DNA from: Argopecten irradians
Lineage: Eukaryota; Mollusca; Bivalvia; Pectinida; Pectinidae
Assembly (NCBI RefSeq): GCF_041381155.1
Contig: NC_091142.1
Span: 6,761,778 to 6,825,777 of the forward strand
Length of the DNA: 64,000 bases
Direction of reading: 5' to 3'
Positions 1 to 64,000 of the stretch are shown here, one piece after another. Both the position numbers and the translations under genes were made by a program. Below the pieces are notes generated by a model. That model was not told where the DNA came from. It worked only from the letters and a program-made list of their open reading frames with translations, and ran no database searches. Within the stretch, counting starts at the first letter, position 1. Every line of letters starts with the position of its first letter.

Positions 1-535
1 GATGGTCGACAGGTGGCCATCTTGGATTTTGATAGTTAAAGTTTGTTACCGCTATTTCTCAAAAAGTGCTGAAGGGATCTTTCTCAATTTTCATAAACAG
101 GTTCCCCTAGGATCCTAGTTGTGCATATTGTATTTTGGGACCGATCGGTAAACAAGATGGCCGACCGACGGCCATCTTGGATTTTGATAGTTAAAGTTTG
201 TTATCGCTTTTTCTCAGAAAGTACTCAAGGGATCTTTCTCAAATTCCATGCATAGGTTCCCTTTGTACCCTAGTTGTGCATAGTACCTTTTAGGACTGAT
301 GCATAATGCCTTTCGGGACTGATCGGTAAACAAGATGGCCAACCAGCCGCCATCTTAGATTTCATTGTTGAAGTTTGTTACCACTATTTCTTAGAAAGTA
401 CTATAGCGATCTGTCTCAAATTTTATATGTAGTGTGTTTGAAAAAGTTTGAAAAGCAGGGAAAAAATCTCTCTTTCCATTGTCAGACATAGATCATTCTT
501 TGGTGGGCGCCAAGATCCCTCTGGGATCTCTTGTT
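1..535 (+). mobile_element. Pearl-like tandem-core element, right part (type A)
   Basis: About three core units of roughly 155-170 bp, beginning near 1, 156 and 332. Each holds a 'gatggcc...ccatcttggatttt' stretch followed by 'tttctcagaaagtact'. The element ends at 505-535 in a hairpin (AGATCCC-tct-GGGATCT) followed by CTTGTT. The left end lies outside the window. It sits in the last KMT5A intron. Other elements here have unrelated cores but the same kind of end (4051, 47146, 57461). Assignment to bivalve pearl or Helentron-type non-autonomous elements is by architecture only; no coding sequence is visible. Confidence 0.7.
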
Positions 536-805
536 TTTTATATCTTTCTGACACCTTGGAGTTGAAAAAGTCATATGTCAAGCGAATAATATCTTTGGAT
601 TAATATAAATGTGCTATGAGATAGAAAAAATAGAAAAAATCTCTTTCATATGCTGGGTATGAAGGAAAGGAATATTTCACTATCAGAGTCACTTAATTAG
701 GTACCTTTAAAACCCTTTGCAGTCTCTTTATGAGACTTATGTTGTTTTAATCCTGTTTCTATTAAGGTTTATCTTTAATTTATGTACTGTATTTAACCGT
801 TTCAG

Positions 806-1019
806 TATTGATGCGACAGCAGAGAGTGGACGACTTGGTAGACTTATCAATCATAGCAAAACAGCTGCAAACTGCCGCACCAAGCTCGTGGAAGTGAACA
901 ACAAACCCTACCTCACTCTGGTGGCCGCCAGGGATATCAGCTTAGGAGAGGAACTTTTATACGACTACGGTGATCGTAGTAAAACTTCATTAGAGTCTCA
1001 TCCCTGGTTAAAACAGTAA
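806..1019 (+). CDS. KMT5A: KMT5A (SETD8/PR-Set7) histone H4-K20 monomethyltransferase, last exon
   Basis: Last exon of the enzyme that monomethylates histone H4 lysine 20 in the nucleus. A 'ttcag' acceptor ends at 805. The exon starts with one base of a split codon and then encodes 70 residues to a TAA at 1017-1019. The residues cover the C-terminal half of the SET domain: RLGRLINHS (cofactor and substrate pocket), then GEELLYDYGDRS with the catalytic tyrosine region, and the family's terminal HPWLKQ (HPWLKH in human). Compared with my memory of the human protein there is one extra residue after the NHSK motif. Earlier exons are off the left edge. The following gene in the same orientation is TMED2; RILPL lies between them on the other strand, as in human. 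Confidence 0.95.
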
Positions 1020-3980
1020 TGGGTGCCTGGGTATAGAAATGGAAGCGATACATGTATTTGTGATTTTAAGATAAATTAATCATACAAATTCAGGTGTTTA
1101 AATAAGAATGTAACTCGGTTGTGTCAAGATCTGCCTTGGACATATGATTCCTTAATTGTCAAAATTTATGTTTTTAGCATTAAGTAAGTTATGGGGGGAA
1201 AATTGACATGCCTGGTAGTCAGTTTTTGACTTGCGTTTGTTTTGAGAAATCAGGGATTGCTGGTTTGATTTTAATAGGCTTTCCCATATGATTTATTTTT
1301 TTAAATTTATGTAAAACACAAATGAATTATGTTTTCTTACATACAGAAACTACCTGAAAAGACAATGATAATCCGCATGTGATTGTGTCGTAAAAGCCTG
1401 ATATTAAATTATGAATAACTTTAAAATATGTTGTGTCGGAGTCTGAGTGAATCTCTTGATGTTCTAAATTATATAGAAAAATATTATGATGGTATGTAGA
1501 ATTTTAAGATTTTGATCCACTAGCTGTATCAATGTGTTGATTTATAAGCTGGGCAATTTTGGGATGGGGTCTTTCACCTCATTTTGGGAATTATGAAATT
1601 GACAACATAGGAAGGAAATTGTCAATGTTTTTGACTTAAAAATTGATTAACAACAATTTTCAATGGGACATATTATTGGTCTCAAAGGCCATGTTATCAA
1701 GGACTGCTAATTTCTCGTATTATAAATTGAACATGAATGTGTGAGGAATAATTTTAATTGAGTTGTGAATTCAATTTCGTATTAATTTAAATTGAATTGT
1801 GAATACATTATCATTGAATACATTACTCAATCATGACATGTGACAGTTGAAACATTTTCATGACCTGTGAATGATTGACCCGTTAGGTAAACATCATTAC
1901 TAAAGAGTTTATGTACAACTCCAATGTCGGATATATTTGGCCAGCTTATGATATTCATAAGTATGCTTATGTATTGAAATAATGTCTATGCTCAGTTACA
2001 AGTTCATTATTATTTATGAACTACAATATTTTAAAAACTGTCTCATTTATTAAGTCAATGACTAAGAAGTATTTGTTTTTAAATTCTGTCAATGCTTTTT
2101 GTATCAGAATCTCACTCCTTTTATTCCACTATTAGAAAGTCTGGCATTAATTTCAATATATCTGTATATTTTTACATTTTTTCCCATATTGCAAAATGTT
2201 AAAACTGTATTTTTTTTTTAAAAGAACTTCTGTCCTTAATTTCTTAAGAGTCACTCTTAAAAAAATGCACTTGTGGAGACTTCTAATGCCGAAATATAAG
2301 ACAAAAATTAGCATTTTAAAAACATGTAATTTTAGCATCTTTGTGCCAGAAATTTTATAGTTTTGTAAGCTAATAATATTAGAAGTAGTTACCAGTATTG
2401 TGAATACACAAATTCTTCATTTCTCTTATCAGTTTTGAAATAAATGTTAAATTTTTGTGGCTTTCAGTAAGTTAGCAGAAAAGTGGGTAATTAAAGTAGT
2501 TAAATTGTTCTGTTCTATTTTATTAGTGTCTGACCTCTAATGCTGAAAAATTAAACAAAAATTTGCATTTTGAAATCATGTATTTCTATGCCAAAAAATC
2601 TGTTTTAATATCTTTTATGTCAGTAAAATAATCTTCATTTCTCTAATAAGTTTTGAAGTCAATGCTGAAATTTTATTGCACCCAAGTAAGTTTGCAGAAA
2701 CAGGTACATAACTAATAGTTGAATTGCTTTTTCTAAGAATGATTTAATCCAGTAAAGTTTTCTTATCAGTGTATGGTGTGAATCTGATACTGGCGACCCC
2801 TATTGTGACTCAACTGACAACATGATTTAGTTTAGTGGCCAGTTTACACTATGTATCCAATTTTCTTATCGTGATATCTTCAATTTGCAGCTATTAATTG
2901 TGTAAATGTATGTATGTGGTGAAATTGTTGGCATTTGAAAGTTTTATCATTTATTTATAACTAAGGAAAAAGTCTCATGCTGTGATTTGTAACTAACAGC
3001 AAACATATCAAATGGTCACTTCCATTAGGGTACGGTTGTGTGGTACTTAAAAGAATGACTTACTTGACGATTGGTTAAACTTTAATATTGACTCTTCAAA
3101 TAGTGTACAATTTGTATTAATTGATATTAAAGTAATTAATTAAAACGTATTTTGATCATTCATAAAGAAACACAGACAGGTGATTTCAACCAGAACCTTA
3201 GTCCTATGCTTTCAGATCCTGTTTTATTGGCAAAAGATTTTAATTTTTTTTTTTGTTCTTTTTTTTTTGTGTTCCTGTGTCTGCAGTTTAATGTTATCTG
3301 GTCAATTTCCTGTCTGGTTCATCAAACCTTTTAAACAGTGAAGTACAATTATATAATATTTAAACAATCATAGTCTTTATTTTATTATGCAATGTACATC
3401 TATGAGGAAAAAAACCAGAATTGTACAAAGATTGAAAAATAAAACTTTTTAAAGATTTTTTTCCCTATGAAAATCATATCCACAGGGTAATTTTATGAAA
3501 GTCTTTTGTGTATCAAAACTGAAAATATGCTTAGATATATTGTGTGTGAGTGTGCAGACAGATTGTCCATTTTGAGTACCGTAATCAAACTTGAGTTGGT
3601 GCTGAAAACCTTTTACCCATTGTGTTCAGTGGCATGTGTCTCTTTGTTGAACATAAAAAAATCCTATTTCTAAATTTTTTGTTGAAAATTTTCACTGCCC
3701 TTTTTATAGTTTTATCATTATGTTGTGCGAAGGAATAAATGCATACGAGTGAGAGCTGTATATTTCTTGAGAATATGTGTGCGTGAATCAGCGTGGATGG
3801 TGTTGAGGTGTTAAGTGGCATTTTGTTAATATTTGCGAGCTGTGAGGTGAAAAAAAGATTGTAACAATCACATCATACAAGTGTTGAATATAAAACTTTG
3901 TTCACAAATGGTTTTCCATGTTCTTTTTCATCCTGACCCTAAGTTTTCGCGGCGTCACAGTAGAGTGGTTTAGGGTTGTT
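1020..3980. other. KMT5A downstream sequence and AT-rich intergenic DNA
   Basis: Non-coding. The first part is probably the KMT5A 3' UTR, but no end of transcript can be fixed by eye. It contains a diverged duplication (2270-2720). T-runs near 3240-3270 and a short GT-rich piece near 3540 are the only other structure seen. No convincing exon on either strand. Confidence 0.5.
2270..2720 (+). repeat. Diverged direct duplication, about 250-bp period
   Basis: The stretch starting at 2277 ('gacttctaatgccgaaatat') recurs near 2530 ('gacctctaatgctgaaaaat'). The parallel order of shared blocks continues ('gttttgaaat', 'aagttagcagaaa') for about 190 bp. Divergence is high, so the duplication is old. 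Confidence 0.55.
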
Positions 3981-4050
3981 TATCCTATCAACAGCCAGAG
4001 TCATGTAGGGATATGCCTTGATGGTGGAGGAAACCCAGAGTACCCAGAGA
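3980..4050 (-). repeat. SINE fragment, interrupted by the element at 4051
   Basis: Contains 'ggaggaaacccagagtaccc', the conserved central segment also seen in the SINEs at 38655 and 8640. The remaining part of the same segment ('aaaaccaaagatc...') resumes at about 5107, directly after the 4051-5106 element. That element therefore inserted into this SINE. Confidence 0.6.
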
Positions 4051-5106
4051 CAAGAGGCCCAGAGGGCCTGTATCGCTCACCTGGTTTTTTGTTAGTAATT
4101 ATCACAAGACTCTGACAATTAGAAAAATAAGCAAAATTGACTCCCAAAGTTTAATTTTGAATCACAACCATACAATGATGCTATTGATACCATACAAATA
4201 TGCTATCCAATACATCGGTTCAGAGACAAAGTAATTTATATGAAAAAAGTAGCCTAATTGACCTTTTTGACCTCGCATCTATTGCCGTTTAAGGCCCCGG
4301 GGGTCAGCCCTATCATTTGTACAATTTCAAATCCCAACCCTATTAGGATGCTACCATTGCATTATAAGTGCTCTTCCATTCTTAGTTGCAGAGAAGAAGT
4401 CGTTTATATGGAAATAGCCAAATTGACCCCTTTTGACCCCACCCTTCAGGCCCCCGGGGGGTCAGCCCTATCATTTGCTCAATTTGGAATCCCCACCCTA
4501 TAAGGATGCTACCATTGCATTATGGGTGCTATACCATGCTTAGTTTCAGAGAAGAAGTCATTTATATGGAAATAGCCAAATTGGCCCCTTTTGACCCCGC
4601 CCCTCAGGCCCCCGGGGGGTCAGCCCCATTATTTGTACAATTTTGAATCCCCACCCTATAAGGATGCTACCATTGCATTATGGGTGCTATCCCATGATTG
4701 GTTTCAGAGAAGAAGTCGTTTATATGGAAATAGCCAATTTGACCCCGCCCCTCAGGCCCCCGGGGGGTCAGCCCCATCATTTGTACAATTTTGAATCCCC
4801 ACCCTATAAGGATGCTACCATTGCATTATGGGTGCTATCCCATACTTGGTTTCAGAGAAGAAGTCGTTTATATGGAAATAGCCAAATTGACCCCTTATGG
4901 CCCCGCCCCTCAGGCCCCCGGGGGGTCAGCCCCATCATTTGTACAATTTTCAGTTAGTAGCCCATAAGGATGCTACCAGTCAAATTTTGTTGAAATCCGA
5001 CCAGCAGTTATGGAGAAGAAGTAGATTGTTGACGGACGCCAGACGACGGACGCCGGACGCTGCGGTATCCCATAAGCTCACCTCGGTCCTTTGGACCAGG
5101 TGAGCT
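4051..5106 (-). mobile_element. Pearl-like tandem-core element (type B, inverted)
   Basis: Five or so core units of about 150-160 bp. Each has 'gaagaagtcgtttatatgga', a C-rich 'ctcaggcccccggggggtca' block and 'aaggatgctaccattgcatt'. One end is a GGCCC/GGGCC hairpin (4055-4070). The other is an AGCTCACCT...AGGTGAGCT hairpin (5076-5106), preceded by a 'gacgacggacgccggacg' simple repeat. It has the same end modules as 47146-49088 but is inverted. Short open frames inside are by-products of the C-rich units, not genes. Both boundaries are fixed by the split SINE. Confidence 0.8.
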
Positions 5107-5155
5107 AAAAAACCAAAGATCAGCGGTCAGTACCCGGCAACTAATCCCAGTAAAA
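5107..5155 (-). repeat. Second half of the split SINE
   Basis: Sequence 'aaaaccaaagatcagcggtc' and onward continues the SINE central domain left off at 4050; compare 'aaaacccaaatgattaggca' at 38800. No tRNA-like head survives here. Confidence 0.45.
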
Positions 5156-5224
5156 TGAACAAGCTTATGATATGCTGGTCCGAAAGGGCTCCAATTTTCA
5201 CAAAATTGTATAGAATAATTGAGT

Positions 5225-5530
5225 TCATTCAATACAAAATTTTATAAAAAAGTTTTTATTCTTGCAAGGCTTGAAGCTAACTAAGAGGCCTAGATACCTG
5301 ATATTGGGTCTGTAGCTAGGATGAAGGGTTACCAAGTTAATTCATATGAATGACCTTCACCATCATTCAAGATCACAGGAGTGACAGTCAAAGAACTTAT
5401 TAAAAACCTTCAACAATTTGTCTGAGAGATCTGGTATTGGGCCTGTGGCATGCTAAAATGTTTGCTAATTTAAACAACCTTGGCCTAAGGTCATTTCTTT
5501 CTTGAGAAGTTGTTTGAATAAAAAGTTAAT
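5225..5530 (+). repeat. Decayed copy of type C core units
   Basis: Two degenerate units related to the array at 57461-59021. Shared blocks are 'ctaagaggcctagatacctgat', 'gatgaagggttaccaagtt' and a 'gaatgaccttcaccatcatt' stretch. No end hairpins are recognisable. Confidence 0.55.
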
Positions 5531-7636: not shown

Positions 7637-7725
7637 TTAACTCATTCACCCCTGAAGACACATTTAGACTCTCCTAAATCTAAGAATGGAACAGTTCATT
7701 GTGAAATTTCAGGGGTGAATGAGGG
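7637..7725. repeat. 90-bp hairpin repeat, copy 1
   Basis: Short palindromic element whose ends read 'aactcattcacccctgaa' and the inverse 'caggggtgaatgag'. The middle is 'acacatttagact...tctaaatc...gttcattgtgaaatt'. It lies just downstream of the C1QBP stop. The family, about 17 copies in this window, is discussed in Part 2. Confidence 0.75.
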
Positions 7726-22229: not shown

Positions 22230-22735
22230 CAATGTCCAGAATACAAAAGTTTGACTGGATACAAAGTGTCCATGTTACAGAGGTTTTCCTGTAAACACAA
22301 TGTCCAGATTACACAGGTTTTACTTTACACAGTGTCCAAATTACAGAGGTTTTACTTTACACAGTGTCCAAATTACAGAGGTTTTACTTTACACAAAGTA
22401 TCCAGATTACACAGGTTTTACTTTACACAAAGTGCCCAGATTACACAGGTTTTACTTTACACAAAGTGTCCAGATTACACAGGTTTTACTTTACACAAAG
22501 TGTCCAGATTACAGAGGTTTTACTTTACACAAAGTGTCCAGATTACAGAGGTTTTACTTTACACAAAGTGTCCAGATTACAGAGGTTTTACTTTACACAA
22601 AGTGTCCAGATTACACAGGTTTTACTTTACACAAAGTGTCCAGATTACACAGGTTTTACTTTACAAAGTGTTCATATTACAAATGGTTCACTCTACACAG
22701 TGTTGAGTGTTCAGTTTACACAGGTTTTACCTAAC
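22230..22735 (+). repeat. 34-bp minisatellite, about 13 units
   Basis: Unit close to 'gtgtccagattacacaggtt' plus 'ttactttacacaaa'. Because 34 is not a multiple of three and the unit lacks stops, all three plus-strand frames stay open for 144-200 codons, giving a 34-residue peptide period (CPDYTGFTLHK...). I see no start context, splice signal or homology, so I treat these frames as repeat artefacts. Two unit types differ at 'acacagg' versus 'acagagg'. Confidence 0.9.
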
Positions 22736-32200: not shown

Positions 32201-35200
32201 TGAATTGGTACACTGTGAATAGCTGCATACATATTTCTAGTAAAGAGAAATAATATTACTGCAATCAATTAAAACTCTGTTTTCTTTTTCTTAGTCATTT
32301 TGAGTTCAAGCTTTCTCTACTTGTCATAGTTTCATACTATTTTGTCTTTTATCGTATTTTATTAATAAACAGATACTATTTATATTCAATTTGATGCAAT
32401 TGATTATTTTTAAGATGCATAATTTATGAAAAAGATTGCCATCTACAAAGGATCCCTGCCATTAAATGAAAGTGAAACTTCCTGTTTGGGAAAATAATAG
32501 ATTGTGTGATAATGAATTTTCAAATTGGAATTTGATAATTAAGAGACAACATGAGGAACAATGCTTGTATAATGTTGAGAGTATCTAGGTAAATTATTGA
32601 CATCCAATCACAACCAAAGACAAGTTTATAGTAATCTGTTAAGATGTACATGACCCAAAGGCCCCAGTCACATCCTTCAGAAACTCAGATTAAGAAATGC
32701 TTATAACTATTAGAAATATCATACAAACAATAGAAAAAAGAAAGGGTTATACATATGAAATATCAAAATATGAAAATAAGATAATTTTTCCATCTGTCCC
32801 TAATGAGTTAATGTTAACAGGCAAGTGAACTGAAGGTACTTTTACACATATATACATCATGTATTCATATGTAGACCTGTAATGTATCCCGTATATATAT
32901 AAAGATAGATAATGTTTAGAAAAAAATAATGCTAATACTATACCACTAAAAGCTAGGGGAAGTTTTTAAAATCATCATTAGTAAATTTCAGATATGAGAA
33001 ATTCTCAAAATACAACATTTCCATGCTAAGTAAATAAAATGCATGCAAATTAGAATGTTGGCTTTTTTTGTCTAAACAACCACACAAAGTACATCTTCAT
33101 TATATGCAAAACCTAGCTATTCTGTTCAATTTTTCTGATGAAATACAGGAAAAATACCACAAGATGAAAATCATTGGTAACATATAGACATATTAGACAG
33201 CTACAATCTATACTGAAAATGGACATCTTAGGGTTTTGTTTCAGGTGAAAAGGTTTAACTCTTTCATCCCTGAAAACACATTTAGACTCTTCCAAATCAA
33301 AGACTAGACTGGTCCATTATAAAGTTTCGGGGTGATTGAGTTCAGCCTTCATACGAAATGAAGGCAACATACAGGATCTGACTGGACAAACATGGGTAAC
33401 ATTATATCCTCCCATCAGGATATTCGATGGTGCATGAAAATTAAAATCTAAATTCAAGACCATTTAATTAATATTTAAGTGACTCATTAGGACCAAACAG
33501 TTCTAAATATAAGGCTTAAGATATAAGATAAAAAGTAATATATTTAGATAATGTTAATCATTCATGATTACAACAATTGAAATTGAATTTTATATCATAT
33601 ATTAATCAATAGTGAATAAAAGAACAAAAACTTCTCAAGGCAATGCATTCCAAACATCAATACAGGGCATATAGGACATTATAACTTATTTATAATCGGT
33701 TCTAAAAATATAGGCCAGGGGAAAGATTTTCCATTAAAATTAGAGGGATTTATGGACCCCTTCCAAAATAAGGACTTTTTTCAGTAATTTACATAAATTT
33801 AGTGTTGTACATTTGATTTTTTTCATTTCTTTTCTTATTCTATCACCTGTTAAATTTAACTCACTCAACCCTGAAATTTCATAATGAACTGGTCAAGTCT
33901 TTAATTTAGAAGAGTCTAAATGTGTCTTTAGGGGTGAATGAGTAAAATAAACAATCCATGTATAAAATGAAAATCACATGACACTCATCATCCACATCCA
34001 TAACAAATATATGTGAAACTGTTACTTACAATTTACGAATGCCCGTCTCGCGTTTGATGCCGGGGTAGAGCTTCTCGTCCGGCTCCTTGTTGATCGGGCC
34101 TTGGACAGGGAGGTCTTCTTCTCCACTATATAAATTCCTCAAAAGTAGAAAGAGGGTTATTTATAAAAGCAGGCAGAAATATACAGGTATCATTCAGAAA
34201 TACACAGGTACACAGGTATCAATCAGAAATATAGAGATATCAATCAGAAATACACAGGTATCACACAGAAATACACAGGTATCAAACAGAAATACACAGG
34301 TATCAAACAGAAATACACAGGTATCAAACAGAAATACACAGGTATCAATCAGGAATACACAGGTATCAATCAGAAATACACAGGTATCAATCAGAAATAC
34401 ACAGGTATCAATCAGAAATACACAGGTATCAATCAGAAATACACAGGTATCAAACAGAAATACACAGGTATCAATCAGAAATACACAGGTATCATCAGAA
34501 AATACAGTACAATCAATCACAGGTATCAATCAGAAATATACAGGTATCAACAGAAATACACAGGTATCAACAGAAATACACAGTTCAATCAAATACAGGT
34601 ATCAATCAGAAATACACAGGTATCAATCAGAAATACACAGGTATCAACACAGGTATCAATCAGAAATACACAGGTATAACACAGGTTCAATCAGAAATAC
34701 ACAGGTATCAATCAGAAATACACAGGTATCAATCAGAAATACACAGGTATCAATCAGAAATACACAGGTATCAATCAGAAATACACAGGTATCAATCAGA
34801 AATACACAGGTATCAATCAGAAATACACAGGTATCAATCAGAAATACACAGGTATCAATCACAGGTATCAATCAGAAATACACAGGTATCAATCAGAAAT
34901 ACACAGGTATCAATCAGAAATACACAGGTATCAATCAGAAATACACAGGTATCAATCAATACACAGGTATCAACAGAAATACACAGGTATCAAACAGAAA
35001 TACACAGGTATCAATCAGAAATACACAGGTATCAATCAGAAATACACAGGTATCAAACAGAAATACACAGGTATCAAACAGAAATACACAGGTATCAATC
35101 AGAAATACACAGGTATCAATCAGAAATACACAGGTATCAAACAGAAATACACAGGTATCAAACAGAAATACACAGGTATCAATCAGAAATACACAGGTAT

Positions 35201-38200
35201 CAATCAGAAATACACAGGTATCAATCAGAAATACACAGGTATCAAACAGAAATACACAGGTATCAATCAGAAATACACAGGTATCAATCAGAAATACACA
35301 GGTATCAATCAGAAATACACAGGTATCAAACAGAAATACACAGGTTTCAATCAGAAATGCACAGGTATCAATCAGAAATACACAGGTATCAATCAGAAAT
35401 ACACAGGTATCAAACAGAAATACACAGGTATCAAACAGAAATACACAGGTATCAAACAGAAATACACAGGTATCAAACAGAAATACACAGGTATCAATCA
35501 GAAATACACAGGTATCAATCAGAAATACACAGGTATCAATCAGAAATACACAGGTATCAAATAGAAATACACAGGTATCAATCAGGAATACACAGGTATC
35601 AAACAGAAATACACAGGTATCACACAGAAATACACAGGTATCAATCAGAAATACACAAAGGTATACTGATGTCTGTTATTATAGGATTTTCAAAAGTGCA
35701 TAAACTAACATCTAGCTAAATATCAGAGGATGTGGGCTTTATTTAAACAGAGGATTATTATCAGTAGATCCCTATGGAAATAATCCCTGTAGGGCAAAGA
35801 GTACACAAGGAAGTATTATGTAGCAGACTTGTGGTAAACCAATAGTCAGAGCTATGTAGGCAGTAATTTAAACATCACAGTAACATCTCATAATCTAAAG
35901 AATGCTAATTGCACAACTTGAGATTTTGTTGTCAGAGATTCTTTGGAATTTCGAGAATTTATTGGAAAGCACAGCAATTTAATGAGGTAAATAGGAAGTT
36001 TAACAAGGAAATGTTAAGAGTAATTAATAAAACAAGGAAGAATTAACTTACATGGAGTCAGTAGAGGATTCAAGGCATGCATTGGCAGTGTCAGCATCGA
36101 GTCTGAAGGACAGAGAGGTCACGGGGTCAACAGCAGAGACATAAGTAATAACAGCAGAGACATTTTGTAATAACAGCAGAGACATAGCCACACAGTTATA
36201 ACATATAATTGTCGTACCAAGATTGATTGAATATCAGTATAATTAATATAAAATACCACATAGAGGATACTGAAAAGTCAATTATCATTGCAGGAAGAAA
36301 TGTTTGCCATTTGGACCAAATCAAATTTTAGGGAATCAAAATTTCGAAATTTGGCTTCAAGGGTATATAATACTATATATATATATTATTCAATTAATGT
36401 TTAATATTTCACAGTTCGACAAAATTTTGCCATCATACAGAAGACACACGAAATTGGAAAAATATCATTCCTGTGAAAATTACCGGTAATACATGTACAG
36501 TCGTTTTACGGCGATACCACTTATTATTTAGCAAAACTTAAAACGGTAAATAGTTTGGGTCCCTTTGATCTCCTGCGTAGCTCGGCGACAAGTTTTGCTA
36601 AATAACAAGCGGTATGGCTGTATACGTACAAGCTGACCATGGTTTGGGAAAAAATCTTGAATAAACACATAACACTAAAAACATTGAATGGGATTGGAGG
36701 GCGACACAGCAGACCAAACTGCTACTTACTTTGGTTTGAATGCCGTGAGTTCCTCTTCCACTTCAATTAACTTTGTTTTTAGTTCGTTCCTCTCCATCAG
36801 TACCGTCCTGAGTTCATTGAGTGTAAATCGTGGACGGTTTGGATCCTTCATGTCAATCACCATTTTACCGATCGTGCTAAGTTTGTGTTGCAGGACGGCC
36901 ATGTTTTCGCCCTCTAACTCATCGACGGAAGCCGTACCGTCGACGTTGCCCGCAGCAACATCTTCATTTAGAACTTCGTCTTTCAAATCCTGAGGTATAT
37001 TGTTTTCCTGATCATGTTCATGATCCTCCTACAGTGTAAAATTAATTTGTTTGGTGTTCGTGAAATTGTCTAGGTAACAAAATATCCCATTAGGATACCG
37101 AGATACAATGGACATAATATTTGAATTTTTATTTTCATTAGTAAAGCTCATGTATGAGAGCTCCACCACAAACCATCATATCAGAAATAGACTCAAACTC
37201 CTGTACATCCAGTTATTTTCTCTGCTATACAGTAACTTTCTAAATAATTATAAGCTTACTTACTCTCCACTGATAACACTTACCTCAGTACTAGCTTCGG
37301 ACAACTTTTGTGCACGTTTATTGGCTTTTTTCTCTTCTTCGATGGCCTCCTGCTCCTTTATCATGTCAGCGATATGTGTTATTTGTTGCTCTTTGTCAGC
37401 AAGTTGAGTCTCAAGGTCGACTTTTTCCTCTAGTAAAGTTTTTGTTTGCTTTTTGTGTGTATTGTTCTTTCGCCTCAATTCAGAATTCACTTTCACTATT
37501 TGTTCCAGTTGTGCCTCCAGCTGTTTTTTTTGTGTTTTTTTTTTTTTTTAAGGAATTGAAAGAATATTTATTACAAATTCATCTGGAATTGCATAATAAT
37601 GAAAAGACTGACATCAAAGTGGCTTTAATGAAAGTTTACATATAAACTGCATTCACAGTCATTTCTACAGGTTGTCATTTGTCAAGGGGAGATAATTTGA
37701 ATTAAATGCTTACTATTACTATCTCAAAGCTTTATAAAATCAAAGGGAGATGTAACTTATCCTAACTAGGTATATTTTGTAGAGACTGGTATGTAAGGAA
37801 ATACATAAATGTATACCAAATTATCTACCAACAATTTTTCACTATTAGTATTTATTTTTGAAGTATATCTATCATATGCTGTTGACTATGTGAAAAGCCA
37901 CAGGGGAGATAACCAGTATTTACTATAAATATCTTGTCTATTCTTTATTCTAGTATTGGAAGGATAACTTTCTATCATTTTGTGCCATTTATCTTGTCAC
38001 TGTCTTGTTTATTTATATACGAGGAAGAGGGATAATTAACATAAACTGTCCTTGAATTTGAATTACAGGGGAGATAACTAACTTACCGCTTCACAGTCTA
38101 CAGATTTCTCCTTAAGGTCCTGTTTTGCTTTCCTTAATTCTTCTCGTTGTCTGTCAACTGTGTCTTTTAATTTTACGAGCACTTCTATCTCTTTTTCCTC

Positions 38201-43144: not shown

Positions 43145-45905
<2,761 letters not shown>

Positions 45906-47145: not shown

Positions 47146-49088
47146 AGCTCACCTGGCCCGAAGGGCCGGTGAGAGTATGTCATGGCGCGGCGTCCGTCGT
47201 CCGTCGTCCGTCCGTCGTCCGTCCGTCGTCCGTCCGTCCGTCTGTCCGTCAACATTTCCTTTAAATCGCTACTAGTCATAGAGTTCTGCATGGATTGTAA
47301 CCAAATTTTGCCACAAACATCCTTGGGAGAAGGGGAACAGAACTTGTATAAATTTTGGCTCTGACCCCCCCGGGGGTAGGAGGGGCGGGCCCAATAGGGG
47401 AAATAGAGGTAAATCCTTTAAATCGCTACTTGTCATAGAGTTCTACATGGATTGTAACTAAATTTTGCCACAAACATCCTTGGGGGAAGGGGAACAGAAC
47501 TTGTATAAATTTTGGCTCTGACCCCCCGGGGGCAGGAGGGGCGGGGCCCAATAGGGGAAATAGAGGTAAATCCTTTAAATCGCTACTTGTCATAGAGTTC
47601 TAAATGGATTGTAACTAAATTTGGCCACAAACATCCTTGGGGGAAGGGGAACAGAACTTGTATAAATTTTGGCTCTGACCCCCCGGGGGCAGGAGGGGCG
47701 GGGCCCAATAGGGGAAATAGAGGTAAATCCTTTAAATCGCTACTAGTCATAGAGTTCTACATGGATTGTAACTAAATTTTGCCACAAACATCCTTGGGGG
47801 AAGGGGAACAGAACTTGTATAAATTTTGGCTCTGACCCCCCGGGGGCAGGAGGGGCGGGGCCCAAGAGGGGAAATAGAGGTAAATCCTTTAAATCGCTAC
47901 TTGTCATAGAGTTCTACATGGATTGTAACCGAATTTGGCCACAAACATCCTTGGGGGAAGGGGAACAGAACTTGTATAAATTTTGGCTCTGACCCCCCGG
48001 GGGCAGGAGGGGCGGGGCCCAAGAGGGGAAATAGAGGTAAATCCTTTAAATCACTACTTGTCATAGAGTTCTACATGGATTGTAACTAAATTTTGCCACA
48101 AACATCCTTGGGGGAAGGGGAACAGAACTTGTATAAATTTTGGCTCTGACCCCCCGGGGGCAGAAGGGGCGGGGCCCAATAGGGGAAATAGAGGTAAATC
48201 CTTTAAATCGCTACTAGTCATAGAGTTCTACATGGATTGTAACTAAATTTTGCCACAAACATCCTTGGGGGAAGGGGAACAGAACTTGTATAAATTTTGG
48301 CTCTGACCCCCCCCCGGGGGCAGGAGGGGTGGGGCCCAATAGGGGAAATAGAGGTAAATCCTTTAAATCGCTACTTGTCATAGAGTTCTACATGGATTGT
48401 AACCAAATTTGGCCAGAAACATCCTTGGGGGAAGGGGAACAGAACTTGTATAAATTTTGGCTCTGGCCCCCCGGGGGCTGGAGGGGTGGGGCCCAATAGG
48501 GGAAATAGAGGTAAATCCTTTAATTTGCTACTAGTCATAGAGTTCTGCATGGAATGTAACCAAATTTGGCCAGAAATATCCTTGGGAGAATAAGAACTGA
48601 GTTTGTATAAATTTTGGCTCTGGTCCCCGGGGCAGGAGGGGCGGGGCCCAATAGGGGAATTATAGGTAAATTCTATAAATTGCTACTTAATTGTCCTAGA
48701 GTTTTGTATGGATTGTAACTAAATTTGGCCACAAACATCCTTCGGGGTAGGAGAACAGAACTTGTATAAATTTTGGCTCTGACCCTCAGGGGGCAGGAGG
48801 GGCGGGGCCCAATAGGGGAAATAGAGGTAAATTCTATCAATCGCTACTTCTCATAGAGTTCTGCATGGATTGTAACCAAATTTGGCCACAAACATCCTTT
48901 GTGGAAGGGGAACAGAACTTGTATAAAATTTGGCTCTGACCCCCAGGGGGCAGGAGGGGTGGGGCCCAATAGGGGATTTAGAGGTTAATATTAAAATTCC
49001 TTCAGAAAAGAAACAATGAACCTGTATTCAGAAAATTATTTGGCATTACAAACCAGGTGAGCGATACAGGCCCTCTGGGCCTCTTGTT
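47146..49088 (+). mobile_element. Pearl-like tandem-core element (type B), about 11 core units
   Basis: The left end AGCTCACC-tGGCCCgaaGGGCC-GGTGAG is followed by a 'cgtccgtcgtccgtc' simple repeat (47198-47250). Then come eleven units of about 155-160 bp, each with 'cctttaaatcgctacttgtc', 'gattgtaactaaatt', 'acatccttgggggaagggga' and 'gggcggggcccaa'. Units in the middle are nearly identical and the last few more diverged. The right end 'aggtgagcgatacaggccct' plus 'ctgggcctcttgtt' closes it. No protein is encoded; short open frames in the GTCC stretch are artefacts. Confidence 0.85.
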
Positions 49089-52663: not shown

Positions 52664-55600
52664 CTAATCATCATCAGAACTATCTCCGTCACTATCGGTC
52701 GACTCTAATACATCACTATCATTGGACTGTTTATGCTGAAGTTGTTTGTGGATCTCAAACATGACCACACTTCCAGCCACTGCAGCATTCAAACTTTCCA
52801 CCCCGTTGACCATGGGTATCATAACACACTGACCATACAAGTCATAAGCTAGTTTATGGGCCTCCATACTGACCCCTGCGATCTCACCACCAATCACCAG
52901 TACTGTGTGGTCAGCCTTTGAGAAGTTCACATCTGAGAAATTTTTCACGGGAAGCGGGGCATGCCTGTACTGTCTCACCTGAGCTGGATCATCAAAACTT
53001 GTGTTTGAAACTAGGCCCACTTCGGGATCATCTTCATAGTCATTTTGATCATATCCGAGTGTATCTATCACATTTTCATCGTCTTCTGGGTCGGTATATT
53101 TCTCAATTCTTTTGTCGGTTGGCCGCCGCTTGTCTGCTAGGTAAATACTTGATCCAACAGGTATGTAGTTTTCTACATGGTTCCAGGCAACGTTGCGATG
53201 AAATGGAACACGGAAATGAGCGCCAGCTCCAGATCTCAACACCTTAGGTTCCCACATATCTACACATTCTGTAAAAAAAAAGAAAAATATCATAATATAT
53301 TATATATTATTTTAAACAAAGAAGAAACATCTCCTATCCATATGAAAATGGGAACATGTACAGGACACTAGAGGTGGCACATAAAAACAACTTCGTATAA
53401 ATTGTAGCAGCACAACATTTTTGATATTGATAAATAATTACATGTACCAGGTAATACTGCTTTCAATAGCAGGAAGTATATCGGTTCCTGTCAAGTTTCA
53501 TACGGTCAACATAAAATTTTTGCAAAATAAGTCATACTGTGTATTGTATGTCTTTTTTTTCTTCTAAAAACATCAACAGTTAGACCAGAGGGACCTGTGT
53601 ATGTTAACTCAGTAACCCCTGAAATTTCATAATGGACTGATCTAGTCTTTGATTTGGAAGAGCCTAATGTGTTTTCAGGGGTGAATGATTTACCTGTGTA
53701 CATTAATTCATTTACCAAGAATTTCATAATGGACTGGTCTAGTCTTTGATTTTGAAAAGCCTAATGTGTTTATAGGGGTGAATGCGTTAAGTAACTACAA
53801 TTTTACCTTTCATAGCTATGATTCTCTCACATCCCACTGCCGCCGCTGAGCGAATCAGTGTACCCATGTTTCCTGGATCTCGAATCTGGTCCAGGACGAT
53901 TGTGAGTGGAATCGTGGTGCGGGGTTGTAAAAACACCTGGCCATCTTCCGGCATGTGGAATAATGCTGAAATAAATGTACATAGGCTTACAGTGTAACAC
54001 AGGATGAAATGTTTACTATAGAGTGTTTCTAAGTTGAATTGAGAAGTCAGACATATTTAAATTATCTCTACATAGGTTTAACTTCTTAATTGAAAATATA
54101 TTGTAGGCTAAAATAAAATTACAAAACTCATTCCATTGTTCATTTTAATATTTAAGTTGGATATCTCTAGAATATCTCAGCTGTGAACTATATACCAGAT
54201 TATCTCCGCCTTTGAATATCTCGGCTGTGAACTTGAATACCAGATTATCTCCAATTTGAATATCTCTCATGTGAACTTTTATACCAGATTATCTCCCCTA
54301 GAATATCTCAACTTTGAACTTGTATACCAGATTATCTCCCCCTAGAATATCACAACTCTGAACTTGCATTACAGATTATCTACCCTTGACTATCTCAGCT
54401 GTGTCCTTGTTCAACAGATTATCTCCCCCTTGAGTATCTCCACTGTGTACTTGTACACCAGATAATCTGCCCTTGAATATCTCAGCTGTGTACTTGTAGA
54501 CCAGATTATTTCCCCCTTGAATATCTCAGCTGTGTATTTGTACACCGGATTATCTCCCCTTGACTATCTCAGCTGTTAACTTGTACACCAGCTTATCCCC
54601 CTTGAATATCTCCACTGTGTATTTGTACTCCAGATTATCTCCCCCTTGACTATCTCAGCTGTTAACTTGTTCACCAGATTATCCCCCTTGAATATCTCCA
54701 CTGTGTACTTGTACACCAGATTAGCTCCCCTTGAATATCTCAGTTGTGTATTTGTACACCAGGTTATCTACCCCTTGAATATCTCTCATGTGAACTTGTA
54801 TACCAGATTATCTTCCCCTAGAATATCTCAACTCTGAATTTGTATACCAGATTATCTCCCCCTAGAATATCTCATCTATGAACATGTACACCAGATTATC
54901 TCTAGAATTTCCAGAAGCAAATGGAATTTTGGGAATTTATCTAAAATTTGAAATAATTTCATATTCAGCCTTGTACACCTTAAAAAAAGCTCCTGGTCTA
55001 GTCATTTAGCAGAAATCTTACCAATGACATCAGGGACCGAGGTAACATCAGACCAATTGTTTAAATGCTTTTCCTCGACTCTGAATATAGGTACTTCTTG
55101 GAGAAGTTCTTTAGGTAATCTCTGCAATGCAACAAAGTCTTTGAAGTAAATAGACTTTGGAACGCCACCGGCTTGTAAAGCATCACTGATCAACCTGCTC
55201 CCTTCCAAGAGAATAGTTCTGTCTATTTCTCTGTGCTTCTTAGATCGTGCAGCTCTCATCAGGACACTGGAATTTAAAACAAACAAGACTTTTTAGCAAT
55301 TTTCAGAGATTAAATTTTCAAGAACAGGGAAATAATACACCTGACTAGAAATTGAACCCAGGTCTCCATTGCGAAAAATGAGTATTTACCAATGGCAATG
55401 CAACTGAGCCAAAGAAGCATGCTCTGTCAGCTGAGTCAGAGTGAATGAGACCGTTGTTAACACTATAAACCACACCGACTAGGTCCTTTTACACAAGTAA
55501 ACTAGTAATTGAGATTTTAGTCACAACATTTCTTACCCAACTTTTTTGTCTTTGGACCCAAGAACTGTATAATTCACGCCAGAATAAGTGTTCTTAATGA

Positions 55601-56285: not shown

Positions 56286-59200
56286 ATGTCTACAAGACGA
56301 GCATTACACTTTGTGTTTAAAGTTGGAAACAGGACGGAAACTGCTAAATTTTACAGAGATGTTCTTGGCATGAAAGTAAGATATTATATAAGTTAGTTAC
56401 ATAATGTACAAGGTACATACAAATTACAAATACATACTATATGCATGCAATATGTGCCTTTTAGCTGATAAGAGCTTTCCTCACACTAGTCAAATTATTC
56501 CAGATCTCTCTCAACGTTTTAATTCCAGGTTTAATATATAAAATCTGGAATGTCTTCTGGAAATATATTAATACATGTATATATGTAGGTAAAAGCTATG
56601 GCATATAGCTGATCTGCATTTATGTAGTATTGTATAGTTCTATATGGGGAAAATTAAATCAAATGTTATTTTGTGACATTTCATTTTTACTATTGAGAAT
56701 TAAACTTTGCTGTATGCATTTACCAGACATTTATTTATCCATTTATCTTTTACCAGACCCCAGTGTATTCCAGCATACTTATGTGTCATTTTCTTTCTTA
56801 ATCTATTGTAATAAAACCTATATAACCCAGAAATACCTATGCAGGTCCAGTTGACATCCAGTTTAGATTAGTTACCTTATATAAATATTCAACATACAGA
56901 AATAAACGGTGCATGATGTGTCCATGTGCACAGCATCCACAGACACATTTGAATGTGCTATCAACAACAGAGCATACAACATCCGGTAGAACCTGACGTG
57001 CAAATCCAGCAATGTCATCTACCTCCTCTCGTGTAGGAAATGCACAATGCAATACGTTGGGGAAACCGGTGGTCCACTCAACGTCAGAATCAACAATCAC
57101 CGCTGGTCTATCAAACAGAACAAACCTGACTATCCGGTTGTCAGACATTTCAACTTACCCATCCATAGTTGGAAAGACATGCAGGTGATTGCAATTGAGC
57201 ACTGTTCCTACTGGACACAAACCAAGCGTTGATCGAGAGAGAGATTCTGGATTATCTATCTACAGACCCGCTATCCCAAAGGCATTAACGAACATTAAAT
57301 ATACTTATTGACGTCAATTGATAACTTGCTTTTCAATTAATTATCCCTACCAATGAGCACTATTTATAAATTTCGCCACACATTGGACGTCACACGTGGC
57401 ACGCTTTCCAGTCATCGCTCATATTTAAGCGTTCTGCCGAACAGCATGGATACATTTTTAGGTCATCTGACCGTTGCGCCGTGCACCGTGCGTAAACTTT
57501 TCATTCAAACGACTTCTTCTTAATAACCGAAATGCCCAGGTTACTGATATTTGGCCTGTAGCATGCTGGGACAAAGGGCTACCAAGTTTGTTCAAATTAA
57601 TGACCTTGACCTTCATTCAAGGTCACAGGGGTCAAAAAGGCTAAAATCTTTAAACAACTTCTTCTCAAGACCCAGAAATCCCAGGGTACTGATATTTGGC
57701 CTGTAGTATGCTGGGATGAAAGGCTACCAAGTTTGTTCAAATAAATGACCTTGACCTTCATTCAAGGTCACAGTGGTCAAATAGGCTAAAAATCCTTTAA
57801 ACAACTTCTTGTGAATAACTAAGAGGCCTAGAGACCTGATATTAGGCCTGTAACATGCTTGGATGAAGGGCTATCAAGTTTGTTCAAATCAATGACCTTG
57901 ATCTTCATTCAAGGTCACAGGGGACAAAAAGGCTAAAATCTTTTAACAACTTCTTCTCAAGAACCGAAAAGCCCAGGGTACTGATATTGGGCATGTAGTA
58001 TGCTGTGATGAAGGGCTACCAAGTTTGTTCAAATGAATGACCTTGATTTTCATTCAAGGTCACAGGGGTCAAATAGGCTAAAATCTTTAAACGATTTCTT
58101 CCCAAGAACAGAAAGGCCCAGGATATTCATATTGGGCCTGCAGCATGCTGGGATGAAGTGTTACAAAGTTTGTCAAAATAAATGACCTTGACCTTCATTT
58201 AAGGTCACAGGGCCAAATAGGCTAAAAATCCTTTAAACAACTTCTTGTGAATAACTAAGAGGCCTAGAGACCTGATATTGGGCCTGCAGCATGCTTGGAT
58301 GGAGTGCTACCAAATTTGTTAAAATAAATGACTTTGACCTTCATTCAAGGTCACATGGGTCAAAAAGGCTGAAGTCTTTAAACGACTTCTTCTCAATAAC
58401 CAAAAGGACCAGAATACTCATGTTGGGCATGTAGCATGCTGGGATGAAGGACTTCCAAGTTTGTTCAAATGAATGACCTTTACCTTCATTGGAGGTCACA
58501 GAGGTCAAATAGGCTTAAATCTTTAAACGACATCTTCCCAAGAACTAAAAGGCCCAGGATACTCATATCGGGCTTGCAGCATGCTAGGATGAAGGGCTAC
58601 CAAGTTTGATTAAATTAATGACCTTGACCTTCATTCAAGGTCACAGGGGTCAAATTGGCTTACATCTTTAAACAACTTTTTCTCGAGAACCAAAAGGCCC
58701 AGGATACTCATATTGGGCCTACAGCACGCTGGGATGAAGGGCTACCAAGTTTGTTCAAATGAATGACATTGACTTTCATTCAAGGTCACAGGGGTCAAAA
58801 AGGATAAAATCTTTAATCGACTTCTTGAGAATAACTAGGAGGCCTAGAGACCTGATATTGGGCCTATGACATGCTGGGATGAAGGACTACCAAGTTTATT
58901 CAAATGAATGACCTTGATCTTCATTCAAGGTCACAGAGGTCAAATATGCTAAAATCTTTAAACGACTACATTGTGTTGTGCTAATAGTCAGATGACCGTT
59001 AAGGTCCATGGGCCTCTTGTTGTAGATCCGGCCTTCGGCTGCCACTTGCTGAAGAGTAAATTGCGCTCCATTCTGATGTATAGTTTAATATTTGTCCACT
59101 TTGTCCCGCTTTACTGTTTGTATCCTATTATGTTATCGTGTTCGTTTTGTATGTCTTGATAAAGGGGCAGATCGCCACAAAAATTTGACATTTTTTTTGT

Positions 59201-62200: not shown

Positions 62201-63548
62201 AACCTGAATTTTACCCCCGCTAAACTGTAGTTTACTTTTAGATTATAATAATAGTCTGAGAGTATAATTATGAAGTTAAAATGTTATTTTTTGTGGATCT
62301 GCTCAAATAGATAGAAGTATTTATTACATTTTGTGCAGTGAAATATAAGGTTTTATGGTGAACATAAAAGCAAATATACTTTACTCCAAGTGAAAATATC
62401 AAAATTTCCACCTCACTCAATGAAATGTAACTGGTATCAAGAAACAAGGATATCCGCTATTTAAATCTGAAGAACACTTTGCTGGACAGCATTAAAAGTT
62501 ATTTCAAGTTAATTCTTTTGTAATCAAAATTGCTCTATGGAATGCATATCTGTTCAGTACTGACAGATTATTTTTAGTTATGGAATTTTGTGTACCTTAT
62601 TTAATGGAGACACATTTAAACTTAACAGCCTTTGTACATATAACAAATACTAGATCTTTAAAGATGCTCCACCGCCGACAGAGCATAAGTGATATTCATT
62701 ATTTGAACAATAATTGGTGTTTAATCGTGTATATATATGTCTAATTAACACAAAAAATAATATAGAAATAATTTATTTTGCTTTTGGTGCATTCGCAATC
62801 TGTACTTTATTCCATATAGGATATAGTGCCACGGACTTTTTTCGGGATGCAATTAATTATTTTTCATATTTTCAACTTGAAGTAGAATTAGAACCTCAAA
62901 CTTTTCAATGGTGGTAATGGTGTAAAGTAAGTAACTTTTGTAACTGCAGAAAATTACCAAATCGCCTGCTCCTGTTTTTGGTAGTGAAAAAATACCATTT
63001 GTCAGCGGTGGAGCATCTTTAATGTTTTCGTCCATCCACATTGAAGTGCTCTGATGTTCAGAAGGGAATTGCATAAATCGAGCAATGCAAAATGAGATGG
63101 CTATGCTTTACTTGTGTGTAGTGTCCGCTGGTATCTTACTCCTCCCACAATGATTTATCCTATTCTGACCTGTTTACCTAGCTAACAGGAGAGAACCCTG
63201 CACTGATGCAGGGCATCCATTAGACCCATGGGAGTATGTTTTTGACTCCCAAAGGTCAGATTTGACTCTTGAGTTTGAAGCACATGTCATTTCTATGTAT
63301 CATAGACTTTGACTCGTCAGATTTTTGAGAAATGATAATTTGATTTCTGAATCTTTGATCGGGATGCCCTGTGTTATAGGATATTACTTCATTCACCCCT
63401 AAGATGTATTTGGACTCTTCTAAATCAAAGACTAGACCAGTCCATTATGATATTTCAGGGGTGAATGAGTTGAATAACTGAATGTTTTGTATTATAGATC
63501 CAGTACAGAGTGTGTGTCTAGGATGTTCAGATCTCTCCAAGTCTGTTG
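56286..63548 (+). CDS. GLOD4: GLOD4 glyoxalase-domain protein, first five exons (continues right)
   Basis: Member of the vicinal-oxygen-chelate (glyoxalase/dioxygenase) fold with two domains. The vertebrate protein is mitochondrial, with a poorly defined reaction. Exons: 56286-56375 ([20 protein letters not shown]), 59319-59368, 60979-61099 ([20 protein letters not shown]), 61891-62029 and 63498-63548, all GT-AG and phase-consistent. They give about 150 residues, through the first domain to the start of the second ([11 protein letters not shown]; human LAVSDLQKSL). Motifs FYRDVLGMK and [14 protein letters not shown] match human closely. Human has about 298-313 residues, so roughly half lies beyond 64000. 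Introns are packed with repeats; part of exon 3 is duplicated twice in intron 3. Confidence 0.94.
56890..57300 (+). mobile_element. Penelope-like retroelement fragment (GIY-YIG endonuclease)
   Basis: The frame around 57000-57235 reads [10 protein letters not shown], then [37 protein letters not shown] and, after 57235, [19 protein letters not shown]. This is the C-terminal GIY-YIG-type endonuclease with its CxxC knuckle, typical of Penelope-like elements. The fragment is broken and has no RT part nearby. GLOD4 intron 1. Confidence 0.8.
57461..59021 (+). mobile_element. Pearl-like tandem-core element (type C), about ten core units
   Basis: Left end 'ggtcatctgaccgttgcgcc'; right end 'gtcagatgaccgttaaggtc' plus 'catgggcctcttgtt', so the outer ATCTGACC/GGTCAT-type blocks are inverse and the last bases fold as AGGtCC/GGGCCT. 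About ten units of roughly 145 bp each carry 'aatgaccttgaccttcattc' then 'aaggtcacaggggtcaaa', 'cttcttctcaagaac', 'gggcctgtagcatgctggga' and 'gggctaccaagtttgttcaa'. No coding sequence. GLOD4 intron 1. Confidence 0.85.
59394..59728. mobile_element. TTAA-MITE, full copy 3 (inverted)
   Basis: 335 bp, opposite orientation to 40741, about 30 bp shorter by small deletions. Ends TTAA-AGATGCTCCTCTGCCGACA and 'cagcggtggagcatct'-TTAA. It starts 25 bp after the GLOD4 exon 2 donor. Confidence 0.85.
60030..60460 (+). repeat. Decayed type C core units split by a palindrome
   Basis: About two core units like those at 57461 ('ggcatgctggggtaaagggctacc', 'gatgaagcgtgcatggttac'). The second is interrupted at 'gggtcaaat' by the 60299-60400 palindrome; 'gggtcaaatagg' resumes directly after it, so 'gggtcaaat'/'gggtcaaat' flanks the insert. 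Confidence 0.65.
60299..60400. mobile_element. Near-perfect 100-bp palindrome, ACAGGGACC family
   Basis: 'cacagggacctgacacgaaa' plus 'atttttaaccaatagtatacatat' mirrors 'atatgtatactgttagttta' plus '...atcgtgccaggtccctgtg'. An AT-rich turn sits at the centre. Flanked by a 9-bp direct repeat GGGTCAAAT (before about 60298 and after 60401), a plausible target duplication. Confidence 0.8.
60580..60884. mobile_element. MITE with GGGCTTTTT ends, GLOD4 intron 2
   Basis: Left 'ccagggctttttctcattgc' and right 'gctgaaaaaaagccctga' are inverse. The next inner blocks also pair partly ('tttgggaaatgggcc' / 'gggccgaaaatcagcccaaa'). The interior repeats 'tttgggaaaa'. Probably hAT-like by look, not proven. Confidence 0.6.
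61171..61410 (+). pseudogene. Two partial copies of GLOD4 exon 3 in intron 3
   Basis: Copies of the last roughly 70 bp of exon 3 plus the start of intron 3 lie at about 61176-61247 and 61335-61410. Both keep the frame ([19 protein letters not shown] and [19 protein letters not shown]). The first keeps a 'gtaagt' donor, the second has 'gttagt'. Neither has the 5' part of the exon or its acceptor. They are intronic duplication products, not exons. Confidence 0.85.
61240..61690 (+). repeat. About 53-bp tandem repeat, GLOD4 intron 3
   Basis: Unit 'ggttactatcactaacgtta' plus 'tatccacccctgaaccatcgtcaatactccag', six to eight imperfect units. It begins as the intronic part of the exon 3 duplication, so both share an origin. 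Related to 6170-6500. Confidence 0.8.
61791..61876. repeat. 90-bp hairpin repeat, copy 16
   Basis: Orientation as copy 2. 'attcacccctgaaatttcat' left, 'cgggggtaaatgagtt' right. It ends 15 bp before GLOD4 exon 4, so it occupies that exon's branch-point zone. Confidence 0.8.
62658..63022. mobile_element. TTAA-MITE, full copy 4 (inverted)
   Basis: 365 bp, orientation as copy 3. Ends TTAA-AGATGCTCCACCGCCGACA and 'gtcagcggtggagcatct'-TTAA. GLOD4 intron 4. Confidence 0.85.
63385..63475. repeat. 90-bp hairpin repeat, copy 17
   Basis: Orientation as copy 1. 'cttcattcacccctaagatg' left, 'caggggtgaatgagttga' right. It ends 23 bp before GLOD4 exon 5. Confidence 0.8.
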
Positions 63549-63793
63549 GTAAGTAAATATACACTGAATTATGATTTCGCAAAGGAGTGGTTTGTTGGCC
63601 AGTACCATGTACATATTATTAAATACAGTCTCTGTCACACAGCTGATGGGGCCCGCTTCTTTTGCTTTTTATGTCATTGTCTTCCAACCATACTGATGTA
63701 AAATAAAACCCCATGTATTGCATTTGTTGTTATACATAGAGGCTGATCTCTGTTTATATAACAATTATTATTATTAATTTGTATTTTGATTTA

Positions 63794-64000
63794 TTAGCTC
63801 ACCATCGTCAAACGCCGAACCGGTTGGTTATTCAAATCACCTTTTGTTCTCTCCATCCCTCCATTAACAATTATTGTTATGGCTTTTTCTCAGAAAGCAC
63901 AGAATCTTGAGCATTACCATTTTATCACAGACTATAACTTGCCTAATTATTTTATTTTAAACTCCACCACTGTCAAATTATCTACTTTATAAGACAAGAA
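63794..64000 (+). mobile_element. Start of another pearl-like element, cut by the window edge
   Basis: 'ttagctcaccatcgtcaaac' resembles the left ends of the type B elements. The following 'ggctttttctcagaaagcac' resembles the type A core at 1-535 ('gctttttctcagaaagtact'). It may join a B-like end to an A-like core; only the first unit is inside the window. Confidence 0.5.

What the first reader, a model, noticed from the sequence alone, without database searches (positions are those of the whole stretch)
1..64000. Four repeat families with unrelated ~145-160 bp cores share one architecture and covarying end hairpins
Elements at 1-535, 4051-5106, 47146-49088 and 57461-59021 have cores with no visible similarity between types, yet the same plan: left hairpin, tandem cores of near-nucleosomal length, then a right hairpin ending CTTGTT. 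The right hairpin changes on both arms together: AGATCCC/GGGATCT, AGGCCC/GGGCCT, AGGtCC/GGGCCT. Such compensating change suggests the fold itself is selected, as with the 3' hairpin of Helitron-class elements. Pearl elements of bivalves and Helentron-linked elements are the known relatives in style (established); that one transposition machinery mobilises all these cores is my inference. Core swapping is hinted at by 63794-64000, where a B-like end meets an A-like core.
Basis: partly seen in the sequence, partly recalled or inferred. Interest (0 to 1): 0.72.

Follow-up and report, generated by a model that had tools for sequence, protein, structure and literature searches.

The report
Helentron satellites and their autonomous partners
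These repeats are hitch-hiking rolling-circle transposons of a known type (HINEs), and the same genome holds full-length, protein-coding Helentron transposons that carry the same ends and, for some types, the same repeat arrays.

Summary
Window elements A, B, C and D are HINEs, non-autonomous Helentrons with satellite-like cores, a kind already described in oyster (PMC7492417). The hairpin plus tail AGGCCCNNNGGGCCTCTTGTT occurs 5,672 times in the 846-Mb genome, its reversed control 0 times.

New here: candidate autonomous partners. An 18,616-bp element on C9 and a 17,483-bp element on C11 run from a HINE left end with core array, through a long frame with Rep, helicase and endonuclease matches, to a HINE right end. 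Both have empty sites, and other copies share the same termini. Their helicase-endonuclease parts are only 48% identical, which speaks against one machinery for all.

Corrections: the cores are not all unrelated. Hairpin pairing is kept, but covariation rests on about two events, and AGGtCC/GGGCCT is a one-sided change. The "core swap" at 63.8 kb is an A-type end with one substitution; a real end/core mix is seen at L061:7017-8110.

No autonomous partner was found for A or D, nor for C with its own cores. New member of a known kind, moderate interest.

The parts
1..535 (+). Right part of a type-A HINE (whole element L009:3511-4535, 1,025 bp): A cores, subterminal repeat GGTGGGC, right hairpin AGATCCC-TCT-GGGATCT at 513-529, tail CTTGTT
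   Evidence: sequence; 86.6% over 374 and 94.4% over 107 columns to the A HINE nested in the C9 Helentron
4049..5106 (-). Type-D HINE: left end AGCTCACCTGG at 5106, microsatellite, about 158-bp cores, right hairpin 4055-4069, tail CTTGTC at 4049-4054
   Evidence: sequence; TRF; left 78 bp 83% and right 34 of 34 to the C11 Helentron
47146..49088 (+). Type-B HINE: left end AGCTCACCTGG with inverted repeat, GTCC microsatellite, 11 copies of a 157-bp core, right hairpin AGGCCC-TCT-GGGCCT at 49068-49082, tail CTTGTT
   Evidence: 89.9% over 1,014 columns of left end plus cores and 35 of 35 of the right end to the C11 Helentron
57460..59021 (+). Type-C HINE: left end AGGTCATCTGACC, CGTGC-type microsatellite, about 10 copies of a 145-bp core, right hairpin AGGTCC-AT-GGGCCT at 59002-59015, tail CTTGTT
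   Evidence: right 38 bp 92% to the C9 Helentron; its cores were not seen in a Helentron
44716..44738 (+). Solo right end, ACAGGCCTACTGGGCCTCTTGTC, without cores or a left end seen nearby
   Evidence: sequence
63796..64000 (+). Start of a decayed A-type element (end AGCTCACCATC, one substitution from the A end), continued and interrupted by an inverted-repeat element in L010

Best explanation
The window elements are HINEs, non-autonomous members of the Helentron superfamily, mobilised by Helentrons of the same genome that encode Rep, Pif1-type helicase and an endonuclease and carry the same kinds of left and right end. Shown: the ends, two empty sites, core arrays inside two autonomous lineages (B cores in one, E cores in the other), copy numbers. 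Inferred from established knowledge of Helitrons: Rep reads the ends, a strand is peeled off from the left end, and the right hairpin with its tail stops it. Inferred here: in the C9 lineage E cores stand on both sides of the genes as direct repeats, so recombination or template switching between them would remove the genes and leave left end - cores - right end, which is the HINE-E structure. Each Helentron lineage thus seeds its own family of ends and cores; ends and cores sometimes recombine.
For: C9: left end L071:2930, E array, frame of 3,067 aa with the Rep-type Helitron_like_N match, PIF1 and endonuclease similarity, E cores again, right end L066:4931; span 18,616 bp; joined flanks continuous in an inverted copy of the target, 717 of 747 columns, no gap at the junction. 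C11: left end L070:1115, about 5.7 B cores, frame of 2,805 aa, right end L068:6291; joined flanks (260 bases) uninterrupted at 98-100% in 8 of 16 matches, three of them of exactly 260 bases and five 2 bases shorter. Other copies stop at the same right terminus: 14 listed rows and 8 of 48 non-self rows, 7 more within 6 bases. Left end, array and unique interior are continuous in C1, C626, C932; E array and interior in C363, C654, C8, C4. Left and right subterminal repeats match within a type (8-10 of 11) better than between types (6-7).
Against: The Rep stretch itself was not read in the C9 and C11 copies (6.1 and 5.3 kb unread); it rests. The endonuclease match of the C9 copy is below Pfam's cut-off (21.5 against 24.5 bits); that of C11 is above (32.4). 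HINE B and the C11 element share only 35 bp at the right, and the C11 element has no B cores there, so the simple deletion model is not shown for B. Window C shares ends but not cores with the C9 element. No partner for A or D. The right end of the E HINE in L061 lacks a good subterminal repeat (6 of 11). No activity was measured.
Confidence: 0.88

Rival explanations
1. One transposition machinery mobilises all types and reads only the common right hairpin and CTTGTT tail.
For: Hairpin shape and tail are common to A, B, C and D; C ends are found with three different core types, C, E and F.
Against: Two Helentron lineages with B-type and C/E-type ends are 48% identical; subterminal repeats pair within type.
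Confidence: 0.15
2. HINE ends captured unrelated host satellites several times; the cores have no common origin.
For: Six of 15 core pairs are at chance over the whole monomer, among them E-F, whose left ends are alike (E and F both match the C9 left end); PMC7492417 also describes related flanks with unrelated repeats.
Against: B, D and F are clearly related (z 13.7-16.7), C-D 6.8, A-E 9.4, C-E 4.7; the first 75 nt after the microsatellite align in phase, summed score 652 against at most 488 in 500 shuffles, 11 of 15 pairs reached by 9 or fewer of 500 shuffles (phase chosen by eye).
Confidence: 0.3
3. The Rep genes on C9 and C11 lie between unrelated HINEs by coincidence of nesting.
For: HINEs are dense; two lie downstream of a different Helitron in L061; A-type pieces lie inside both elements.
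Against: Empty sites match the outer left and outer right end in both cases; other copies share boundaries and interior.
Confidence: 0.03

Closest known systems
Cg_HINE elements of Crassostrea gigas (PMC7492417; outline and abstract, sections 7, 8 and 9, and passages seen)
   Same: Left subterminal repeat with its inverted repeat, GTCY/GTCC microsatellite, satellite-like core array, right subterminal repeat and palindrome, TT-rich target without duplication, related flanks with related or unrelated cores.
   Different: That study could not relate any autonomous element to its HINEs; here two lineages with the same ends and arrays are located. Another genome; sequences were not compared with oyster.
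Helentrons and HINEs of mite, Culex and Drosophila (PMC4067079; passages seen)
   Same: Rep/helicase with fused endonuclease; HINEs are deletion derivatives sharing ends with the autonomous element; some HINE copies hold tandem repeats.
   Different: Here the core array is shown inside autonomous copies, on both sides of the genes in one lineage; I saw no such statement in the passages read.
Pearl / CvA elements and BIV160-Cg170 satellites of bivalves (PMC5139131, passages seen)
   Same: Cores of about 160 bp, divergent families joined by short conserved motifs, carried by Helitron-type elements.
   Different: No sequence of these could be fetched, so membership of the cores is untested.

Membership tests
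Helentron (autonomous C9 and C11 elements) | Rep-type domain and Pif1-type helicase in one frame | tested here: met
   Helitron_like_N in frames of 3,067 and 2,805 aa without inner stops; PIF1 at E 6.9e-18 and 1.7e-21
Helentron (autonomous C9 and C11 elements) | Endonuclease fused at the C-terminus | tested here: met
   Exo_endo_phos: C11 32.4 bits, above the cut-off 24.5; C9 21.5 bits, below it; the two are alignable over the whole domain
HINE / Helentron | Subterminal inverted repeats of 11-12 bp | tested here: met
   8-10 of 11 within type, 6-7 between types; the E copy in L061 is an exception with 6
HINE / Helentron | Inverted repeat beside the left subterminal repeat, then microsatellite | tested here: met
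   sequence of A, B, D, E, F left ends; weaker in window C
HINE / Helentron | Palindrome near the 3' end | tested here: met
HINE / Helentron | Insertion at T-rich/TT target without target duplication | tested here: met
   two empty sites, both in a T run, no duplication; window elements not tested
HINE | Shares ends with an autonomous Helentron | tested here: met
   B and D with the C11 element, C, E and F with the C9 element; A: not found
Canonical Helitron | 5' TC, 3' CTRR, insertion between A and T | tested here: not met
   elements start AGC/AGG after a T run and end CTTGTT
Pearl | Sequence relation to Pearl ends and cores | not testable with these tools
   no Pearl sequence was available

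The most novel reading that the evidence does not exclude
The satellite-like array is a resident part of the autonomous Helentron, not captured host DNA. It stands beside the left end and, in one lineage, also before the right end; as direct repeats the two arrays repeatedly expel the coding region and so turn out HINEs. The core families descend from one ancient array that travels with the element, so a widely dispersed satellite family of bivalves would be a Helentron organ.
Probability: 0.3. Interest if true: 0.65.

Novelty: new member of a known kind. Interest (0 to 1): 0.45.

Why it matters
The 2020 oyster study left open which autonomous elements drive bivalve HINEs and their dispersed satellite-like arrays. 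Here two lineages of Helentron with the same ends and arrays are placed on a genome with exact boundaries, so the partner question and the origin of the arrays can be tested in one assembly.

Tried and rejected
Chance hairpins: rejected by counts against reversed patterns. The 63.8-kb core swap: rejected. L061 as autonomous partner: rejected; its two HINEs are separate downstream elements, and no endonuclease family matched its Rep-helicase frame. L062-L065, other Helentrons with an endonuclease-like C-terminus (judged by eye from the frames): no terminus of their own was found; a D-type HINE lies downstream in L062 and L063, and the search with L064 met a longer tandem array only. L067: no right end found. 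A hairpin inside every core: only C, A and E have a stem that few shuffles reach (3, 5 and 1 of 200); D is reached by 113 of 200, B and F have none of 6 pairs. Listing hairpin letters genome-wide: after two rows the letters were no longer shown, so pairs were counted on right ends from fetched loci. Dropped before that count: 25 of 48 candidates fetched through the exact stem pattern, and 2 of the other 23 as chance matches (L068:1096, L025:733). One search was a wider first scan (115 rows, with many chance and double rows) and was replaced.

Full report
What was checked. The window is C9:6761778-6825777 of an 846-Mb genome in 1,508 contigs. Type A was completed to the left: 1,025 bp, L009:3511-4535. 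Type D lies on the minus strand. A solo right end at 44716-44738 was not in the finding.

Abundance. AGGCCCNNNGGGCCTCTTGTT occurs 2,835 times forward and 2,837 times reverse, the reversed control never. With the hairpin free, the anchors for the C, B/D and A types find 3,866, 5,171 and 2,965 right ends against controls of 12, 9 and 21. These are exact anchors, so the families are larger.

Autonomous partners. Helitron_like_N has 104 matches in the genome, from 114 candidates. Regions downstream of eight of them were fetched. Two gave right ends with no left end between the endonuclease and the right end, and their upstream regions were then fetched. On C9 a frame of 3,067 aa ends in PIF1 helicase (E 6.9e-18) and a weak endonuclease match, 21.5 bits against a cut-off of 24.5. 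It is followed by E-type cores (L066:4529-4890) and a C-type right end at L066:4931. Upstream lie an A-type HINE, nested, at L069:4603-5082, an array of about 8.5 E cores, and the left end AGGTCATCTGACC at L071:2930. The span is 18,616 bp. Left of it lies an inverted copy of the target in which the flanks are continuous: 737 of the 1,200 joined bases align (137 on the left, 600 on the right), 717 of 747 columns identical, left part ending at base 1100 and right part starting at base 1101. On C11 a frame of 2,805 aa ends in PIF1 (1.7e-21) and endonuclease (32.4 bits). It is followed by a B-type right end at L068:6291 and preceded by a B-type left end and about 5.7 B cores at L070:1115-2126; a 3'-truncated A-type piece lies at L070:4729-5404. 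The span is 17,483 bp. Its joined flanks, 260 bases, are uninterrupted at 98-100% in 8 of 16 matches, three of exactly 260 bases and five 2 bases shorter; a ninth matches 4-260 at 82% with an insert. The Rep stretches of these two copies, 6.1 and 5.3 kb, were not read.

Other copies. In each only 40 candidates were scored, of 3,746, 477, 6,019 and 4,029. With the 3' region of the C9 element, 14 listed rows end exactly at its terminus (151 matches, list cut). Two of these, C607 and C510, match from inside the endonuclease to the terminus; one is a 72-base piece on C15; the other eleven match from inside the cores, at HINE-E-type right ends. With the 3' region of the C11 element, 8 of 48 non-self rows end exactly at its terminus and 7 more within 6 bases. 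Left-end rows start at the T run before AGCTC, and the copies on C1, C626 and C932 continue through the array into the unique interior. Taking together, four further chromosome-size contig loci have left end, Rep and right end in order: C6:23785013-23803501, C16:539485-556489, C11:29813960-29831261 and C11:11395955-11414674. The E array runs into the same unique interior in C363, C654, C8 and C4. Small contigs may be second alleles and are not counted as independent.

Two lineages. The helicase-endonuclease parts are 48% identical (336 of 700). Their subterminal repeats differ, and left and right repeat match within type (8-10 of 11) better than between types (6-7), except for the right end of the E copy in L061 (6) (left 11-mers of A-F typed from the sequence).

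Hairpin covariation. 48 right-end candidates were collected from window and loci; 25 had been fetched by their exact stem and were left out, 2 of the other 23 are chance matches. The remaining 21 give 14 distinct rows. On the six-pair stem 94.9% of cells are paired (shuffles 88.5%, 0 of 500 as high); slid structures reach at most 58.2%. Three pairs have two-sided changes (46 of 500 shuffles reach three), and the number of further pair types, 6, is not above shuffles (435 of 500). Two of the three pairs come from the switch between the AGGCCC and AGATCCC stems, one from a single A copy. So the fold is kept, the number of events is small, and the window C stem is a one-sided change.

Cores. Consensus cores (monomers: B 13, C 9, D 3, A 5, E 13, F 2) were compared with 300 dinucleotide shuffles each. 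B-D 16.7, B-F 16.3, D-F 13.7, A-E 9.4, C-D 6.8, C-E 4.7, B-C 4.2, C-F 3.8, A-B 3.4; B-E, A-C, A-D, D-E, A-F and E-F are at chance. A-E is partly a palindrome, as the reverse strand also scores 39. In the first 75 nt after the microsatellite the summed in-phase score is 652, shuffles at most 488; 11 of 15 pairs are reached by 9 or fewer of 500 shuffles, A-E by 18, A-C by 37, A-F by 114, E-F by 442 (start points chosen by eye). I read this as old common descent with strong divergence, not proven for A and E. L061:7017-8110 (F) has C-type ends with B/D-related cores, and the left ends of E and F both match that of the C9 Helentron while their cores do not match each other: ends and cores do recombine.

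How it probably works. Shown: ends, empty sites, shared arrays. From established knowledge of Helitrons: Rep nicks at the left end, the helicase peels a strand, and the 3' hairpin with its tail stops it. Inferred: in the C9 lineage E cores flank the genes as direct repeats, so one recombination between them gives the HINE-E structure; HINE-E and this element agree at 89% over the left 1,069 columns and at 86-94% over about 330-370 bases at the right. For B this is open (35 shared bases at the right).

Known or new. The architecture, the T-rich target and several end/core combinations are described for 11 Cg_HINE elements of the Pacific oyster (PMC7492417: abstract, sections 7-9, passages). A passage there states that none of ten autonomous elements could be related to them. 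HINEs as deletion derivatives of Helentrons are described in mite and Culex (PMC4067079, passages). In the passages that I saw of PMC11136912, PMC12628747, PMC5139131, PMC8268682 and PMC10294476 no autonomous partner of a bivalve HINE is named. The listings showed none either. Most subscription journals are not held, so this is not proof of absence from print.

Noticed in passing
G000:C1:5413599-5431423: Six A-type right ends (+) and six C-type right ends (-) alternate with a spacing of about 3,355 bases: a tandem array of a unit that holds two HINEs.
   Followed up: no
G000:C11:11395955-11414804: A second copy of the C11 Helentron shares its left flank (130 of 130 bases) with the first copy but not its right flank; a one-sided duplication, unexplained.
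   Followed up: no
G000:C29:40982-43633: The target site of the C11 Helentron occurs here with a B-type right end at the same junction, but with another interior; perhaps an allele holding a HINE.
   Followed up: no
cores of types A, C and E (window 1-535, 57460-59021; L061:8222-9943): Each holds a palindrome with a 9-pair stem; the A and E palindromes are alike (CAAGATGGC/GCCATCTTG) and in A the reverse strand reads on to CTTGTT.
   Followed up: partly
window 5276-5380: A lone C-like core just outside the D element (by eye).
   Followed up: no
L010:397-800: Inverted repeats surround a piece of the decayed A-type element that starts at window 63796 (by eye).
   Followed up: no
window 22233-22699, 34209-35657, 54170-54902: Minisatellite arrays with units of 34, 21/42 and 44/87 bases.
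   Followed up: no
L064 sense strand from about 4400 (G000:C4): A Helentron of another lineage is followed by a tandem array whose units recur at several places in the genome.
   Followed up: no
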